Below, piece after piece: positions 3,862-11,723 of a stretch of DNA of 64,000 nucleotides. The stretch's first letter is position 1; each line of letters opens with the position of its first letter. Where the stretch lies: positions 124,001 through 188,000 of the forward strand of contig JAUNMR010000002.1 in assembly GCA_030537455.1 (NCBI GenBank). The letters are read 5' to 3'. A program made the position numbers and the translations under genes. Under the pieces are notes generated by a model. The model had not been told where the DNA came from. It saw only the letters and a list, made by a program, of their open reading frames with translations, and made no database searches. The stretch comes from Planctomycetia bacterium (GTDB lineage Bacteria > Planctomycetota > Planctomycetia > Pirellulales > Thermoguttaceae).

Positions 3862-4296
3862 ATGGAACATTCAAATATAAAACTCGAAGAGCTCCCAGAA
3901 GCGCAACGTCGCCAAATGGAAACGATGCTCGCCGACAAGTTCATCTGCAATTTACTCGGTATCAAATTAACCTCCGTAGGCGAGGGAACGGCAACCGCTG
4001 AGCTGGAAGTGAAAGACATTCACATGAACGGCGTTGGCATTTGCCAAGGCGGCGTTCTTTTTTCTCTGGCTGATTACACGCTCGCCGCCGCTTTTAATCA
4101 TTCCGTTGAGCCTGTTGTGGCGCTGGAAGTTTCGATTTCCTACGTTAAGTCCGTTAAAGGCGGTAAGGTTATTGCCGAGGCGCGCGAGCTGTGCCGTACT
4201 CGTACGACTACTGCCGGCGAGGTTACTGTGCGCGACGAACAGGGGCGCATTCTATGCCTTGCCAAGGGACGAGGATATATCTTGCAACCCCATTAA
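3862..4296 (+). CDS. PaaI-family hotdog-fold thioesterase
   Basis: This 144-residue protein has the hotdog thioesterase pattern of the PaaI/YbgC-related group. A short N-terminal helix (about 1-30) precedes the FICNLLGIKLTSVGEG strand pair, then HMNGVGICQGGVLFSLADYTLA, in which the conserved Gly-Gly and the Asp at the start of the central hotdog helix are present. The C-terminal strands ALEVSISYVKSVKGG follow. Such enzymes hydrolyse acyl-CoA or aryl-CoA thioesters. The length is normal. A perfect TTGACA lies at 3797-3802, but no good -10 box is at the right distance. The neighbours (ACT protein, purH) do not indicate a pathway. Confidence 0.85.
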   Translation: MEHSNIKLEELPEAQRRQMETMLADKFICNLLGIKLTSVGEGTATAELEVKDIHMNGVGICQGGVLFSLADYTLAAAFNHSVEPVVALEVSISYVKSVKGGKVIAEARELCRTRTTTAGEVTVRDEQGRILCLAKGRGYILQPH

Positions 4297-4472
4297 CAAA
4301 CTCACAGTCGTAAGCAGGGGCTTGATTCTTTCCTGTTTACTGAGACAATATGAACCGACTACGTTAGGACGTCGAGTCGACGCTTGCAAAGCGAGACGGA
4401 GCGTTAGTTTCTTCTTTACTATTTGTGCGCTTAGGCGCGTGAGCCTTTTTACTACCAGTGAAAGGATGAAAT

Positions 4473-6038
4473 ATGGATCCTCAGGTTAAACGAGCATTGA
4501 TCAGCGTCAGTGACAAGACCGGTTTGACCGAATTTGCACGTGGTCTCGTTGCCGCGGGCGTGCAACTCTTTAGTACCGGCGGTACCAAGCGCCATCTCGA
4601 AGCTAATGGCGTACCAGTGACAGACGTCTCTGACTATACTGGTTTTCCTGAAATGATGAGCGGTCGTCTCAAGACGCTCCATCCGAAAGTGCACGGAGGA
4701 ATCCTTTGCCGTCGCGACGACCAGAGCGATATGAATTCCGCGGCGGAACATGGTATCGAGCCCTTTGAACTGGTTGTGGTCAATCTTTATCCCTTCGAAG
4801 CGACAATAGCCAAGCCGGACGTCACTGACGCCGAGGCGATTGAAAATATCGATATCGGCGGTCCCACGATGGTGCGCGCCGCCGCGAAGAATCATAAGTT
4901 CGTCGGTATTGTCACGAACGCTTCACAATACGGTCCGACGCTCGAGCAGATCCAACTCAATGGTTCACTGACATTACAGATGCGACGCAGTCTTGCGCGC
5001 GACGCTTTCGCTCACACCGCCTCCTATGACGCGGCTATCGCGCGTTACTTCGCAGAACATGACGGCGAGGCGACGTTCCCCAATACGATTTCCACTGCAA
5101 TGAAGCTTTCCACTGAGCTACGTTATGGCGAGAACCCGCATCAACGCGCCGCGCTGTACGTGGACTCTAAATACACCGGTCCCTCCGCTGTGACTGCGCG
5201 TCAGCTCAATGGTAAAGAACTTTCCTACAATAATCTCTTAGACCTTGACGCAGCGCTTGGTATGGCGCGTTTCTTCAAACGTCCTGCCGTCGCCGTGCTC
5301 AAGCACAACAACCCCTGTGGCGCCGCGACTGCCGACACAATTGCCGAGGCGTTGCGTAAAGGTATGGAAGGGGATCCGCTGAGCGCTTTTGGCTCCATTA
5401 TCGGGCTGAATCGTGTGGTTGACGTCGCCTGCGCAGAATACTTAGCGCAACCTGGTTTGTTCGTCGAGGCTATTATTGCTCCCGCGTATGACCCGAAGGC
5501 GCTGGAAATCCTCACCACCGTTCCGAAGTGGCATGCGAACGTACGCCTGTTGGAATGTGGCTGCGACGTCTTAGAACCCGCTAAGGTCGATTGGGTCGTG
5601 CGTCCTCTCACCGGAGGCGCGCTCCTGCAAGACGCCGATGTGGAAGACGACGACGAATCCGAATGGCGCGTGGTTACCGATAAAGCTCCAACTGAAGAGC
5701 AAATGCGCGATCTGCGTTTTGCCTGGGCAATGACGCGTCACGTCAAATCGAACGCCATTGTCCTGTGTAAGGACGAAATGCTTGTCGGAGTTGGCGCCGG
5801 TCAAATGAGTCGCGTTGATTCCGTTGAAATCTCCGTTAAAAAGGCTGGTGAGCGCGCTGAAGGCTCGGTTCTTGGATCCGACGCATTCTTCCCGTTCGAC
5901 GACGGTATTCGCGCTGCCAAAGGCGTGGTCGCTGTGATTCAACCCGGCGGTTCCAAGCGCGATCAAGAGGTTATCGACGCCTGCAATGAACTGGGCATTG
6001 CGATGATCTTCACCGGTCGTCGTCACTTCAAACACTAA
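4473..6038 (+). CDS. purH: Bifunctional AICAR formyltransferase / IMP cyclohydrolase
   Basis: PurH carries out the last two steps of de novo IMP synthesis: formylation of AICAR from 10-formyl-THF, then ring closure. The 521-residue length is standard. The N-terminal MGS-like cyclohydrolase domain (about 1-150) shows LFSTGGTKRHLE and the RLKTLHPKVHGG signature. The C-terminal transformylase domain shows YGENPHQ, NGKELSYNNLLDLDAA and the catalytic KHNNPCGAA. It ends with the conserved FTGRRHFKH. AAAGGA at 4460-4465 precedes the ATG by seven bases. A rho-independent terminator follows at 6094-6133. purM lies far away at 53 kb, so the purine genes are dispersed. Confidence 0.97.
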   Translation: MDPQVKRALISVSDKTGLTEFARGLVAAGVQLFSTGGTKRHLEANGVPVTDVSDYTGFPEMMSGRLKTLHPKVHGGILCRRDDQSDMNSAAEHGIEPFELVVVNLYPFEATIAKPDVTDAEAIENIDIGGPTMVRAAAKNHKFVGIVTNASQYGPTLEQIQLNGSLTLQMRRSLARDAFAHTASYDAAIARYFAEHDGEATFPNTISTAMKLSTELRYGENPHQRAALYVDSKYTGPSAVTARQLNGKELSYNNLLDLDAALGMARFFKRPAVAVLKHNNPCGAATADTIAEALRKGMEGDPLSAFGSIIGLNRVVDVACAEYLAQPGLFVEAIIAPAYDPKALEILTTVPKWHANVRLLECGCDVLEPAKVDWVVRPLTGGALLQDADVEDDDESEWRVVTDKAPTEEQMRDLRFAWAMTRHVKSNAIVLCKDEMLVGVGAGQMSRVDSVEISVKKAGERAEGSVLGSDAFFPFDDGIRAAKGVVAVIQPGGSKRDQEVIDACNELGIAMIFTGRRHFKH

Positions 6039-6093
6039 TTGAAGTCGCGCCTGATCTTGACGTTTGATTCTTATTAACGTCGGTCTTAATTAT

Positions 6094-6133
6094 CGGAACG
6101 GCGCGTTGTGTGACGCGTCGTTCCGTACTTTTT
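6094..6133 (+). terminator. Rho-independent terminator after purH
   Basis: Arms CGGAACGGCGCGT (6094-6106) and ACGCGTCGTTCCG (6113-6125) pair with a single mismatch around a six-base loop. They are followed within four bases by a run of five T (6129-6133). Confidence 0.85.
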
Positions 6134-6196
6134 GCATGCTTCGTGACTCAGTGATTTCGAGCGTCCAATTGGTCGACTCACGACGAGAATTGCCTC

Positions 6197-8332
6197 ATGA
6201 ATAACAATGCTGTTTCGGACGTCGTTAATCAAACGGCGCGGTTACTGGAATTCCGCGAGGGCGCCTCTAGAGCGTCAGAAGAGCTCACACAACTTGCCGC
6301 GCGTGTGAAAAACCTTGAAGTTCCTCTGGAAATCTTCAATGGCGTTCAGGCTGAACGCGACCTGCATGAGCTTGACCAAATGCTTGGATATTGGTTCAGC
6401 GGTTATACACGTGAGGCCATTGCAGTTTTGCGTGAGACGATCCTTACCGGCGCGCCACGACTTAAACGCCAACTTGCACATGGTTTGTCCGCGTCGATGT
6501 TGGAATTCCTTGCTCTGGAACAGTTGCCACTTGACTCCATTGTCTTTATACGTGAGCGTTTAGCCGTGCGAAGTCTCGAACGCCTGCGTCAGGTTTGTGA
6601 ACGTTCTGAACTCTTTGCCGCCGGCGTTATGTCGGAACAAACGGAACTTGACGTTCTAGAAGAACTTGTGCGTCGCGAAACAGAGCGTTCTGCCGATTCC
6701 CATGATAGGAACGCTATCGCTAGTTCCGACCAAGCGACATTGGATAGTCTGACGAGCGCTGAGCCGAGTTGCGCTAGTCCCGATACGATCTTCTGGGCAA
6801 ACGCCGATGCTCTAGCAGACGCTGTCATTTTTGAATTGTCGCGTCCTTATGAGGGGACGCTTCGTGAAAGCGTGACCGATCTTGCGTCTGCAGATAAGCT
6901 TGGCGCCGCATTAGAACAGGCCGCTGGGGTTGTGGATAAATTCAAGCGGTTTTTTGTTACACGACAAAGTTCTGCCTATGCGCAAATCCAGCAACGTGAA
7001 GAAGAACGCGAGCGTCAACAAGCGCGTCGACGTTTCGAAAATCAGGAACAAGAGCGATTTGACGAACTGGTAAACGGAGTTTTTGAAACCGTCAAGGTTG
7101 GCGCCTTACGTCGGCGTGAGGACATGTTGACTCGACTCGATTTCCTAACGCGGTGCGATAATCCGGCGGCGTTCTTTGCGAGAATTAAAAAATCACCGTT
7201 TTGCCACAAAGTTTTAGAAGAAAAACCTTTCTATTTGGCAGTGCAGTTGCTCCCTAACTTTTTTGTTATGCCCTATAACAATAGGCCGACGCCCCCGGCG
7301 ACGCTCTATTTTTATGTTGCCTCTGATTTCGTTTGGGGCGTGCGCGAAGCGCTCCTAACCTCAACGCCGGCACATTGGAAGAAGTTAAAGGCACGCGCGA
7401 GGGACAGGGGCATGAATCTAACGCCGTTTGGACTCTATGAGCGTACGCGACGACTTTGTTCGCGCACTGAAAAGAGACTTTATGAAAAACTCAATTTGCC
7501 CTATATTCCCGTCGAGTTAAGAGCCGACGCCGCTGAATGGAAGTGGATTGCCCAGGGCGAACCGCAGCTGATTCAACCGCAGGATCTTCAGGGCGACTTG
7601 CACCTGCATACTACCTTTACCGACGGTTCGGCAACGTTGGAGGAAATGGCTAACAATGCGCGAGCGCTCGGACTACATTACATGGCCGCCACCGATCATA
7701 CCCAAAATGTTGCCGTTGCCGGTGGAATGAACGACGTTGAATGTTTGAGATACTGGGAACAGATCGATCAGCTTAATGAGCGCTTAGCAAGCTCGGGTAT
7801 TGATTTTCACGTCCTTAAAGGAATCGAATGCGATATTCTTGAAGCCGGCGGTATGGATCTTAAAGACGAAACCCTTGCCAAAGCCGATTGGGTGATTGCT
7901 AGTATCCACTACGGCAAGCGCCAGTCTCGTGAATTGATTCATCGAAGATATCTTGACGCATTTCGGAATCCATACGTTGACATTATTGCCCACCCGACCG
8001 GAAGAATGATTGGTATCGAACCCAAAATTGACGTAGATATCGAGTTCTTATGTCAAAATGCGGCAAAATATGGCAAGTGTCTGGAACTCAACTGCCAGCC
8101 TAGACGATTGGATCTCGATCGTGACGCGCTCATGCTCGCTAAAGAGTACGGCGTGCCGATTGTGATTTCCACCGATTCGCACAATCCCCAGCATGCTCTG
8201 TATTTGAACTTTGGCGTTTATCAAGCGCAACGCGCAGGTCTGGTTGCAAGCGACGTTCTCAACACCCTTGACTATCAACAGTTTGTCGAACGACGCCGTC
8301 AAGTTAAAGCTCAAATGAACCTTCACAATTGA
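6197..8332 (+). CDS. PolX-like protein: degenerate polymerase-beta core plus intact PHP domain
   Basis: This 711-residue protein has the order of bacterial family-X polymerases: an N-terminal helical region in the place of the HhH domain (about 1-165), palm-like region (about 290-445), and C-terminal PHP domain (466-711). The PHP metal ligands look complete: HLH at 469-471, then ATDHT, GIECDIL, ASIHYGK, IAHPTGR and ISTDSH. The palm is altered. GSxRR is GALRR (302-306), and the usual DxD is RLD with Arg313 in place of the first Asp and only Asp315 kept. The strand that carries the third Asp (as in VDFR) reads NFFVMP. The FTGS dNTP-binding motif is LTSTP. A charged, low-complexity insert of about 110 residues separates the helical region from the palm. 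I infer loss of polymerase activity with a retained PHP nuclease or phosphatase. It sits between purH and an envelope gene, with no repair operon. Confidence 0.85.
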   Translation: MNNNAVSDVVNQTARLLEFREGASRASEELTQLAARVKNLEVPLEIFNGVQAERDLHELDQMLGYWFSGYTREAIAVLRETILTGAPRLKRQLAHGLSASMLEFLALEQLPLDSIVFIRERLAVRSLERLRQVCERSELFAAGVMSEQTELDVLEELVRRETERSADSHDRNAIASSDQATLDSLTSAEPSCASPDTIFWANADALADAVIFELSRPYEGTLRESVTDLASADKLGAALEQAAGVVDKFKRFFVTRQSSAYAQIQQREEERERQQARRRFENQEQERFDELVNGVFETVKVGALRRREDMLTRLDFLTRCDNPAAFFARIKKSPFCHKVLEEKPFYLAVQLLPNFFVMPYNNRPTPPATLYFYVASDFVWGVREALLTSTPAHWKKLKARARDRGMNLTPFGLYERTRRLCSRTEKRLYEKLNLPYIPVELRADAAEWKWIAQGEPQLIQPQDLQGDLHLHTTFTDGSATLEEMANNARALGLHYMAATDHTQNVAVAGGMNDVECLRYWEQIDQLNERLASSGIDFHVLKGIECDILEAGGMDLKDETLAKADWVIASIHYGKRQSRELIHRRYLDAFRNPYVDIIAHPTGRMIGIEPKIDVDIEFLCQNAAKYGKCLELNCQPRRLDLDRDALMLAKEYGVPIVISTDSHNPQHALYLNFGVYQAQRAGLVASDVLNTLDYQQFVERRRQVKAQMNLHN

Positions 8333-8357
8333 CCAAACTCGACGGAAAAGGTATAAT
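8329..8357 (+). promoter_or_regulatory. Sigma-70 promoter of the O-antigen-ligase-like gene
   Basis: TTGACC at 8329-8334 and TATAAT at 8352-8357 are separated by exactly 17 bases. The -35 box overlaps the stop codon of the preceding PolX-like gene. Transcription would begin near 8364, giving a leader of about 140 bases. Confidence 0.75.
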
Positions 8358-8504
8358 ATAGCTCCCAGAAGTTAGGACAACTTGTTATGAAATGACTTCG
8401 TTGTGTCAATGGTTGTTACAACGCGCGTCCCTTGTTCACCGCAGTGACGATGTGATTGGAATCGCTCGTACTTTTCCTCGACCCTCGTTTTGCACGTTAT
8501 ATCC

Positions 8505-11500
8505 ATGCAGACAGCTAATCGAATCCTTACTTATCTCGGACGCCTTTGCGTTATTTTGACTATAGTTTTTGGTCCGTTGCGCAATGCTGGACTTGATCCT
8601 GTTGCGGAACGATACCTGATTCTCTTGTGTATAGCAAGCGGCGTTTTGGCGTTGGGGGCATTGTGGACCACGACGAAACGAACGCGACAGATGAACTCTT
8701 ACAAAGGCGCTCTTTTAGCGTCGATTCCACTGATACTCGCTCTGGCTTTGTCTGTCCTGCAATTCATTCCTCTGCCGTACAACGTCGTTGCAAAGCTGTC
8801 GCCACGCGTGCCTGAGCTTAATCATGCGCTCACGCCGCCGAATATCGGTTACGACACAATTCATTCCCTCCCTACTTCCGTGGAAATCGACGAAGATTTT
8901 TCTTCTGACCATGATGGTGAAAACGATACTGAAGGCGACAGAGCGCTGGAGATGATCGAACGCCTTGAACAGGTAAAGGATCGTCTCTCCGAAAGCGAGG
9001 CGCTTAAACAGACGCGTATTTTGGGGGAACAAGCGTTTCCTTATGAGGATGATAGCGCATATGACGTAGAAACGGCGATGATTATCGACGCACTCGTGGA
9101 AAATGAATTTCTACCGGAAGCGCAACGCAATCGTGTCGCAGTCTGGGGACATACGATTAGTCTGTATCCATTAGCGTCGCGCGAGATGTTCATGCGCATG
9201 TGGGCGGGTTTTATACTCTTCCTTGCCGCCTCTTTGCTCTTCAATACTAATGCCTCGCGTCGGTTCCTCTTTATTGTGGCGGCTTTGGTCGGTCTGTGCT
9301 ATTCGCTGTTGTGTCTTTCGTTACGCGCAAATTCAGGTCTTCTGAATCTTAAAATCTTTGACTACTGGTTGCTTTCCAAGGCCAAGATCGCCGGCTACGG
9401 GACATTTGTTGACCGCAACGCCGCCGGTGGCTATCTTGTCTTAACCTTAGGCGCTTGTGTCTATTTGGCTAGTATAGAGTTCCTTGGGACGGTCTTCCGT
9501 TTGCAAAGAGAGGTTAAAGAACGTAAAAAGGAAGAAAAAGAAGCGCGTGAATCTGGATACGACAAACCGATTCATTCGAAGTGGAAGGTACTGTTAGGCG
9601 ACTTCTTTTACCTTTTCAATCGTCGATTTATACTTTGGCTCTTTGTCATGGGCGTGATCGTCGCCGCGATCTTTGCCTCATATTCTCGCGGCGCCTCTTG
9701 TACCGCTGTTCTTGTCTTTTTACTCGGTACTTTGTTGTTATGCCTTAGAAAAGAAGCGCGAAAATATTGGTTGGCGTTTTTGCTCGTGGCTCTGATCGCC
9801 GGCGGGGCGATTGTGGCGGTTAATCTGCATGAACATGTTGACGCACGTATGGCGACGATTGTGGAAACTGATGATAACGGCGACGCCTTCATTCAAGCCA
9901 ATGGTCGCTTTGACAACTGGCGCGGCGCGCTACACACTTCGCGCGACTATTTATGGTTCGGCGCCGGTCTCAACGCTTATCCCGTGGCGAATTACGCTAA
10001 CGACGTTGCCACAAAGCAGAATCGCTATTACCATATGGCAGAAAACGTCTTTATCCAAACCCTTGTCGAATTTGGGATTATTGGGCTGACGCTACTGACG
10101 ACCGAATATCTTTTGCTATTCTGGCTCATTGGTAAATTCTGTTTTGGAAACCATAGCTTGGAAACCTATGCCTTTGCTTCCGCTGGCGTTGTGATCGTTG
10201 TGGGACAGCTGGTAGCTGCTAATTTCGACTTCGGCAACTATTTCCCTGCCAATCTCATGCTCTTTGCAGCGCTTATTGGCGCGTCGTTGGGACGTCAGAA
10301 TCGTCGACGTTGGGATATGTTAAAACAGGCTTTGAGCAATCGTAAATTACGTTCAAACGCCAATGAACAGATGCGTCGCCTAGCGCTAATGGAACGCGTT
10401 GGCGCGATTGTCACTACTTTGATTTTACTTGTGACTCTCTTAGGAACTCATTGGGTTTTACAAGAGTCTGACGATCTGATTACGCGCGAGAATTTACTAT
10501 CCGATTCCGTCTTCGCCGAAGACGAGCTTCCCTATGCCAAGACCACGGACGTTGAAAAGCGAATTAAAGCGTTCCAGAAATACGTCTCCAAACGCGACGA
10601 TTCCTTTGAAGTACGATATACTTTGGGAGAATTGGAAACGTTGAGATTTAGATTGCATCGTCGTGACGAAATGCTAGCTCGACGACCTGATACCGATCCC
10701 AAGTTGCTTTGGGCTCAAACGACGCTCGACTCCTCTCTGGAAATCCTCCTAAAGTACCAGGGTATCGGGTTTGAAGTGCCGTCCTTGCGCATTCGTGGGA
10801 ACGAATTGATTCAGTCAGTCGCTCCTGAGCTAATGAAGAATTTCTTGGCGGCGAGGCGTATTTGCCCTATGAAGCCGATGATCTATCCCAAAATCAACGG
10901 CGTCGCTCCGCTTGCGACTATGTTACGCTGGCCTGACAATCGAAATCTAATTGAATTAAACGCACGACGCTCTGCCTCACTAGCGCCTTATAGTTCGCAG
11001 TTGCTCTATATCAACGGTTACTACTTGAGCAACGTCAAATCGACGTCCTTGCAGAATCAGTTCTGGCAAAAGACCGTGGAGTATGATCCGCGTCAGGCGG
11101 AGTCGGTCGCAATTGCGCTTGCCGCTCAGACCCCTCAAAATAAAGTCGTTGACGCCATAGTGGACGTTATGCCGAATAATCCATATGTTCTCTGTCGACT
11201 TATTCGTCAGTATGCTCAATGGAAGCAAACGACGTTGTACAGAGGGATCCTTGCCAAGGGCGAGGAGGTCTTTAGTGTTCAACCCCAGGACGCGCAAGAC
11301 GCTAAGTACTGTTTTTATGCGGGCAACTATTTCAAAGCGCTCGAGGAATTCGACCGCGCCGACGATTTTTACGCGCGCGCCTATGAGCTTGAACCAGACG
11401 TCTCCGACTTCTTTTTTGCTCGAATTCGTATGATGTGCCAAAACTCTAAGGTCATGAACAAAGACCAAGAGTGTTATGATCTGCTCATGGCATACAAAAA

Positions 11501-11723
11501 CAGTGGCGCGAAAAAGAACTTGTGGCTCTGTGATAAGTACCTCGAGGACGTAGAAAAAAATCTCAAACGTTCTCAAGCGCGTAGCGAGGCGCTCTTGCGC
11601 ATCCAAAGGGAACGCGAACAAGACGAACGGATTCGCAATCGTGTGTATGGAGAAAAAGAAAGCGACCAGGCGCCGTCTTCCGACAACGCCGACGACTTGC
11701 AAGAGGAAAATGATGAATTATAA
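8505..11723 (+). CDS. O-antigen ligase/polymerase (Wzy/WaaL) family membrane protein with TPR-like tail
   Basis: This is a protein of about 1072 residues if it starts at the ATG at 8505; an in-frame TTG lies at 8490. The N-terminal half has many hydrophobic segments. It carries the O-antigen ligase family hallmarks: a membrane segment with ASYSRGA, then NGRFDNWRGAL and a large loop with the ENVFIQTLVEFGIIGL pattern before a further membrane helix. An acidic insert of about 120 residues (about 105-225), rich in Glu and Asp, lies between early membrane segments. The last 400 residues are soluble and helical, with TPR-like repeats (for example KYCFYAGNYFKALEEFDRADDFYARAYELEP), and end in a charged coiled-coil. 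The family joins or polymerises lipid-linked sugars at the periplasmic face. No other polysaccharide genes are next to it. Confidence 0.8.
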   Translation: MQTANRILTYLGRLCVILTIVFGPLRNAGLDPVAERYLILLCIASGVLALGALWTTTKRTRQMNSYKGALLASIPLILALALSVLQFIPLPYNVVAKLSPRVPELNHALTPPNIGYDTIHSLPTSVEIDEDFSSDHDGENDTEGDRALEMIERLEQVKDRLSESEALKQTRILGEQAFPYEDDSAYDVETAMIIDALVENEFLPEAQRNRVAVWGHTISLYPLASREMFMRMWAGFILFLAASLLFNTNASRRFLFIVAALVGLCYSLLCLSLRANSGLLNLKIFDYWLLSKAKIAGYGTFVDRNAAGGYLVLTLGACVYLASIEFLGTVFRLQREVKERKKEEKEARESGYDKPIHSKWKVLLGDFFYLFNRRFILWLFVMGVIVAAIFASYSRGASCTAVLVFLLGTLLLCLRKEARKYWLAFLLVALIAGGAIVAVNLHEHVDARMATIVETDDNGDAFIQANGRFDNWRGALHTSRDYLWFGAGLNAYPVANYANDVATKQNRYYHMAENVFIQTLVEFGIIGLTLLTTEYLLLFWLIGKFCFGNHSLETYAFASAGVVIVVGQLVAANFDFGNYFPANLMLFAALIGASLGRQNRRRWDMLKQALSNRKLRSNANEQMRRLALMERVGAIVTTLILLVTLLGTHWVLQESDDLITRENLLSDSVFAEDELPYAKTTDVEKRIKAFQKYVSKRDDSFEVRYTLGELETLRFRLHRRDEMLARRPDTDPKLLWAQTTLDSSLEILLKYQGIGFEVPSLRIRGNELIQSVAPELMKNFLAARRICPMKPMIYPKINGVAPLATMLRWPDNRNLIELNARRSASLAPYSSQLLYINGYYLSNVKSTSLQNQFWQKTVEYDPRQAESVAIALAAQTPQNKVVDAIVDVMPNNPYVLCRLIRQYAQWKQTTLYRGILAKGEEVFSVQPQDAQDAKYCFYAGNYFKALEEFDRADDFYARAYELEPDVSDFFFARIRMMCQNSKVMNKDQECYDLLMAYKNSGAKKNLWLCDKYLEDVEKNLKRSQARSEALLRIQREREQDERIRNRVYGEKESDQAPSSDNADDLQEENDEL

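What the first reader, a model, noticed from the sequence alone, without database searches (positions are those of the whole stretch)
6197..8332. PolX-like protein with an apparently dead polymerase core and intact PHP domain
The PHP metal ligands look complete (HLH 469-471 and the following Asp, Glu and His motifs). The palm has lost its first Asp (Arg313 in RLD), the third Asp (FFVMP in place of VDFR-like) and the FTGS dNTP motif. A 110-residue insert follows the helical region. Family X polymerases with PHP domains are known (B. subtilis PolX). A version that keeps the nuclease but drops the polymerase would be a repurposed enzyme, perhaps a stand-alone phosphoesterase.
Basis: partly seen in the sequence, partly recalled or inferred. 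Interest (0 to 1): 0.7.

Follow-up and report, generated by a model that had tools for sequence, protein, structure and literature searches.

The report
Polymerase-dead PolX with intact nuclease
In one group of gut bacteria, a DNA-repair enzyme that normally both builds and trims DNA ends has lost the parts needed to build DNA but kept its trimming domain intact; polymerase-dead enzymes of this type are already known, but this lineage has rebuilt the dead half further than the studied ones.

Summary
Window 6197-8332 encodes a 711-aa PolX homologue from a ruminant-gut Thermoguttaceae genus (Planctomycetota). Its PHP domain keeps all nine metal ligands. Its palm keeps one of three catalytic Asp: first -> Arg313, second kept (Asp315), third -> Tyr371 in LYFYV. 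FTGS is LTST. All 15 assembled copies in the genus lack the first and third Asp; all 36 canonical relatives from the same family and order have them. Altered copies occur in three more genera of the family.

The damage exceeds the active site: all three HhH motifs and the lyase-domain FRxRAYRxAA motif are gone. The '110-residue insert' is two inserts around a kept palm helix. A third, of 13 residues, sits in the hairpin before the lost third Asp and has a conserved P-x-N-x-R-x-T-P motif. AlphaFold2 still gives a PolX fold (pLDDT 89.9), and dN/dS is about 0.1-0.3 throughout.

The class is known: Prostova et al. 2022 described polymerase-dead PolX that act as Mn-dependent 3'-5' exonucleases. This is a new, more remodelled variant. 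Likely a DNA 3'-end nuclease; a retargeted phosphoesterase remains possible.

The parts
6197..8332 (+). Whole gene: noncanonical PolX, 711 aa
   Evidence: ORF; NCBIfam PolX match below cut-off; structure matches T. thermophilus PolX
6197..6490 (+). Residues 1-98: remnant of the 8-kDa lyase domain; FRxRAYRxAA and GIGKDLAEK motifs lost
   Evidence: Alignment with 36 canonical relatives; no Pfam HHH_8 match while canonical relatives match
6491..6682 (+). Residues 99-162: remnant of the next HhH domain; GLGPKKA and GFGAKTE motifs lost
   Evidence: Alignment
6683..6784 (+). Insert A, residues 163-196, acidic, variable, low-confidence in the model
   Evidence: Alignment lengths; pLDDT about 55-60 around 160-180
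6785..6841 (+). Residues 197-215: palm helix shared with canonical PolX, between the two inserts
   Evidence: Alignment; helix 200-215 in the model
6842..7084 (+). Insert B, residues 216-296: two long predicted helices
   Evidence: Alignment lengths; helices 225-252 and 259-292
6926..6955 (+). Conserved GVxxKxKRFF motif inside insert B (residues 244-253)
   Evidence: FF invariant in the 15 genus copies and present in L034
7085..7336 (+). Palm, residues 297-380, fold kept, catalytic triad broken
   Evidence: Alignment; strands in the model
7133..7135 (+). Arg313, in place of the first catalytic Asp
   Evidence: R/Q/K/A in 15 genus copies, D in 36 of 36 canonical
7139..7141 (+). Asp315, second catalytic Asp, kept
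   Evidence: D in 14, E in 1 genus copy
7271..7294 (+). PYNNRPTP motif (residues 359-366) in the 13-residue hairpin insertion before the third catalytic strand
   Evidence: P359, N361, R363, T365, P366 invariant in the nine genus copies aligned in A2
7307..7309 (+). Tyr371, in place of the third catalytic Asp
   Evidence: Y/N/F/T/C in the genus, D in 36 of 36 canonical
7355..7366 (+). LTST (387-390), in place of the FTGS dNTP motif
7337..7576 (+). Residues 381-460: C-terminal polymerase subdomain (Pfam 'thumb') and linker
   Evidence: PF14791 at 388-442
7577..8296 (+). PHP domain, residues 461-700, nine metal ligands kept
   Evidence: PF02811; ligand columns
4473..6038 (+). Neighbour: purH, upstream in all assembled genus loci
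   Evidence: Pfam; synteny
8490..11723 (+). Neighbour: large Wzy_C (O-antigen ligase family) protein downstream
   Evidence: Pfam; synteny

Best explanation
It is a noncanonical PolX. The polymerase half should no longer hold two catalytic metals or a dNTP, so it should not make DNA (shown at sequence level, not by assay). The PHP domain keeps a complete metal site and should be an active Mn-dependent phosphoesterase. The most likely reaction is 3'-5' exonuclease or 3'-end clean-up on DNA, as in Deinococcus noncanonical PolX (inferred from the closest assayed relatives). The dead polymerase body survives as a selected scaffold. Having lost its HhH and lyase-domain DNA grips, it probably engages substrate or a partner through new surfaces: the helical insert with the KRFF motif and the P-x-N-x-R-x-T-P hairpin (inference). 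Ku was not found in the genus, so a role in Ku-dependent end joining is unlikely.
For: Triad and dNTP-site losses in 15 of 15 genus copies against 0 of 36 canonical relatives; nine PHP ligands kept in all complete copies. The nearest assayed enzymes, D. radiodurans and D. gobiensis PolX, are polymerase-dead Mn-dependent 3'-5' exonucleases. PolX fold retained: 3au6 Z 42.8, 2.6 A over 417 residues. Purifying selection in every region. It is the only PolX found in its genome. No Ku in 20 genus genomes.
Against: No activity data. The known DNA grips are lost, the PHP domain is more acidic than in canonical relatives (mean charge -11.5 against -2.5), and a paper title cited in PMC9226535 states that T. 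thermophilus PolX needs both its polymerase core and PHP domain for exonuclease activity.
Confidence: 0.62

Rival explanations
1. The PHP domain has been retargeted to another phosphoester (an RNA 3' end, an oligonucleotide or a small molecule), and the old polymerase body is now only a structural or partner-binding platform.
For: All three HhH motifs and the lyase-domain motif lost; more acidic PHP domain; new conserved motifs in inserts; no Ku in the genus.
Against: The PHP sequence stays closest to PolX PHP among NCBIfam models, 50% mean identity to canonical relatives, and is the most conserved region.
Confidence: 0.28
2. It still polymerises DNA with an unusual metal site.
For: D315 and the palm fold are kept. 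[quoted passage not shown] radiodurans PolX with an AEE triad, and was not found in the later study.
Against: No acidic residue on the third catalytic strand in any genus copy and a non-acidic residue at the first position in all 15; dNTP motif lost.
Confidence: 0.02
3. It is a decaying gene with no function, on its way to the loss seen in other genera of the family.
For: About half of the family genomes have no PolX match, and copies in g50 and g53 are shorter or lack N-terminal parts.
Against: Intact frames in all genus copies, dN/dS about 0.1-0.3, PHP ligands never lost, conserved locus.
Confidence: 0.04

Closest known systems
Noncanonical (altered) PolX, e.g. Deinococcus radiodurans PolX (PDB 2W9M; Prostova et al. 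2022, PMC9226535)
   Same: Domain order and fold; catalytic triad and dNTP motif altered; PHP ligands kept; expected nuclease only.
   Different: D. radiodurans PolX keeps HhH motifs and RAYRxAAR; noncanonical PolX tend to be shorter than canonical ones, whereas this one is longer, with three insertions. Ku association reported for the class is absent here.
Canonical bacterial PolX, e.g. Thermus thermophilus PolX (PDB 3AU2/3AU6) and canonical Thermoguttaceae PolX
   Same: Domain order and predicted fold; PHP domain.
   Different: Triad, GS of GSxRR, YFTGS and Asn, HhH motifs and lyase-domain motif lost; insertions gained.
PolX-like proteins of Actinobacteria (PMC12926913; NCBIfam PRK07945)
   Same: Close PolX-type PHP domain without a working polymerase.
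   Different: There the polymerase domain is physically missing; here it is present and folded.

Membership tests
Noncanonical PolX (Prostova et al. 2022) | PolX with one or more of the three catalytic acids replaced by non-acidic residues | tested here: met
   First and third positions replaced in 15 of 15 genus copies
Noncanonical PolX (Prostova et al. 2022) | PHP nuclease site of nine ligands (HHHEHHEDH) kept | tested here: met
   All nine kept
Noncanonical PolX (Prostova et al. 2022) | No DNA polymerase activity, Mn-dependent 3'-5' exonuclease activity | not testable with these tools
   Needs purified protein
Noncanonical PolX (Prostova et al. 2022) | Well-conserved 8-kDa domain, as in most PolX of that survey (typical, not defining) | tested here: not met
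   FRxRAYRxAA and GIGKDLAEK motifs lost; no HHH_8 match
Canonical PolX (active family X polymerase) | Three catalytic acids and dNTP motif | tested here: not met
PolX-like (Actinobacteria) | Polymerase domain physically absent | tested here: not met
   Palm and thumb folds present in the model

The most novel reading that the evidence does not exclude
A polymerase whose catalytic core was lost within one bacterial family and whose body was then rebuilt, by a long palm hairpin and a helical insert, into a dedicated adaptor that delivers the PHP nuclease to a new substrate or partner.
Probability: 0.2. Interest if true: 0.65.

Novelty: new variant of a known kind. Interest (0 to 1): 0.4.

Why it matters
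It adds a planctomycete lineage of polymerase-dead PolX in which the canonical form is still found in the same family and altered copies in four genera show different degrees of change. That makes it a usable case for asking why the nuclease is kept, and what the dead polymerase body does, once DNA synthesis and the known DNA grips are gone.

Tried and rejected
Acids elsewhere in the palm that could rescue the site: within residues 298-380, the columns acidic in at least 80% of the genus are 309, 315, 321, 322, 328 and 377; only 315 is a triad position, and canonical PolX also has an acid at about 377. A second, canonical PolX in the genome: none found; the two other hits are short PHP-region matches. 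NHEJ link: Ku in 0 of 20 genus and 3 of 119 family genomes. Absence of the gene in five genus genomes: four also lack purH and the fifth has a contig that ends 49 bases after purH, so assembly gaps are the simple explanation. A sliding-clamp or PIP-like reading of the KRFF motif: considered by eye, does not fit the bacterial clamp consensus as I remember it, not tested. A literature search for planctomycete PolX found no paper on these proteins.

Full report
What is there. The ORF at 6197-8332 (+) encodes 711 residues. NCBIfam matches residues 255-697 to PolX at E 7.7e-86, below the curated cut-off. Pfam recognises only the PolB thumb and PHP domains, whereas canonical relatives from the same order also match HHH_8, HHH_5 and the palm model (the palm match falls below its cut-off in one of three). 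AlphaFold2 on a 38-sequence alignment gives mean pLDDT 89.9 and pTM 0.72. The model aligns with T. thermophilus PolX 3au6 at Z 42.8, rmsd 2.6 A over 417 residues. It is therefore a PolX homologue by sequence and predicted fold.

The active sites. I compared 15 copies from the genus (two of them cut off before the PHP domain) with 36 canonical relatives. The canonical set is D-D-D at the triad in every case. GS of GSxRR, the YFTGS motif and the dNTP-site Asn (Trp in all 15) are also changed. The nine PHP ligands are kept in every complete copy of the genus, in eight altered copies from other genera and in all canonical relatives.

Beyond the active site. The lyase-domain FRxRAYRxAA motif and the three HhH motifs (GIGKDLAEK, GLGPKKA, GFGAKTE) are gone in the genus. 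D. radiodurans PolX, a known polymerase-dead enzyme, keeps GLGPKK, GFGAK and RAYRxAAR (alignment). The reported insert is two inserts, about 163-196 and 216-296, around a palm helix that canonical PolX shares. Insert B holds GVxxKxKRFF, with FF invariant in the genus and present in the g44 copy; by eye the g50 copies have a similar basic-hydrophobic stretch (LLDRIRDYL, LLHRLKSFF), which the alignment did not bring into register. A third insertion of 13 residues lies in the hairpin before the third catalytic strand and holds P-[YF]-N-x-R-[PL]-T-P. By position this looks like loop 1 of family X polymerases; that identification is from memory and was not tested.

Distribution. Record titles of relatives name Thermoguttaceae and uncultured planctomycetes, several of them from goat, deer and buffalo rumen, rectum or caecum. 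Fifteen of the 20 genus genomes, the window's own included, have a copy. Four of the other five also lack purH and the last has a contig that ends just after purH, so missing assembly is the simple reading. Other genera of the family carry a canonical PolX, an altered one (g44, g50, g53) or none. A tree of the C-terminal polymerase subdomain and PHP columns, with the palm left out, puts the g1, g44 and g50 copies together (100/99); canonical and altered rows lie on opposite sides of one branch (99/90), with the g53 row on a long branch of unsure place. One loss of polymerase function is the simplest reading; the midpoint root and the long branches limit this. In the genus the gene sits between purH and a Wzy_C protein, and it lies beside purH in g50 too. 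Neither neighbour was seen at the canonical loci examined, which reach only about 1-3 kb to either side.

Selection. Pairwise dN/dS in close pairs of the genus is about 0.1-0.3 in the N-terminal, insert, palm, thumb and PHP regions; in g50 the PHP value falls to 0.04-0.05. The one exception is the aberrant N-terminus of L048/L049 (0.57). The dead half is under purifying selection.

How it most likely works. Polymerisation needs two metals held by the triad (established for the family), so it should be dead. The PHP site is complete and should be an Mn-dependent phosphoesterase. The nearest assayed proteins, D. radiodurans and D. gobiensis PolX, lack polymerase activity and are 3'-5' exonucleases; in D. 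radiodurans the activity was shown to depend on the PHP site. I therefore favour DNA 3'-end trimming (0.62). Loss of DNA grips, a more acidic PHP domain and absence of Ku leave a retargeted phosphoesterase as a serious rival (0.28).

Novelty. Polymerase-dead PolX are 27.5% of prokaryotic PolX in the 2022 survey, and a 2026 survey agrees that the PHP site is kept more often than the polymerase site. The 2022 main text does not mention planctomycetes. What differs here is the loss of the HhH and lyase-domain motifs together with enlargement and new conserved motifs. I rate it a new variant of a known kind, of moderate interest.

Noticed in passing
window 6926-6955 (residues 244-253): GVxxKxKRFF motif, FF invariant in the genus and also present in g44, inside an otherwise variable insert; role unknown.
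   Followed up: partly
L058 1730-3010 (-): g53 copy of 427 aa that lacks the lyase and HhH regions altogether but keeps palm-like, thumb-like and PHP parts; its place in the tree is unsure.
   Followed up: partly
L048 1795-3597, L049 1865-3550: Two g50 copies have an unrelated-looking N-terminus (dN/dS 0.57) but the same purH-side locus and a strongly conserved PHP domain.
   Followed up: partly
window 3862-11723: Gene order thioesterase, purH, PolX, Wzy_C protein is kept in the genus loci long enough to show it.
   Followed up: yes
Family genomes: 59 of 119 family genomes gave no PolX match, while 247 of 296 genomes drawn from the order match the N-terminal PolX model; repeated whole-gene loss in this family seems likely, though some genomes are incomplete.
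   Followed up: no
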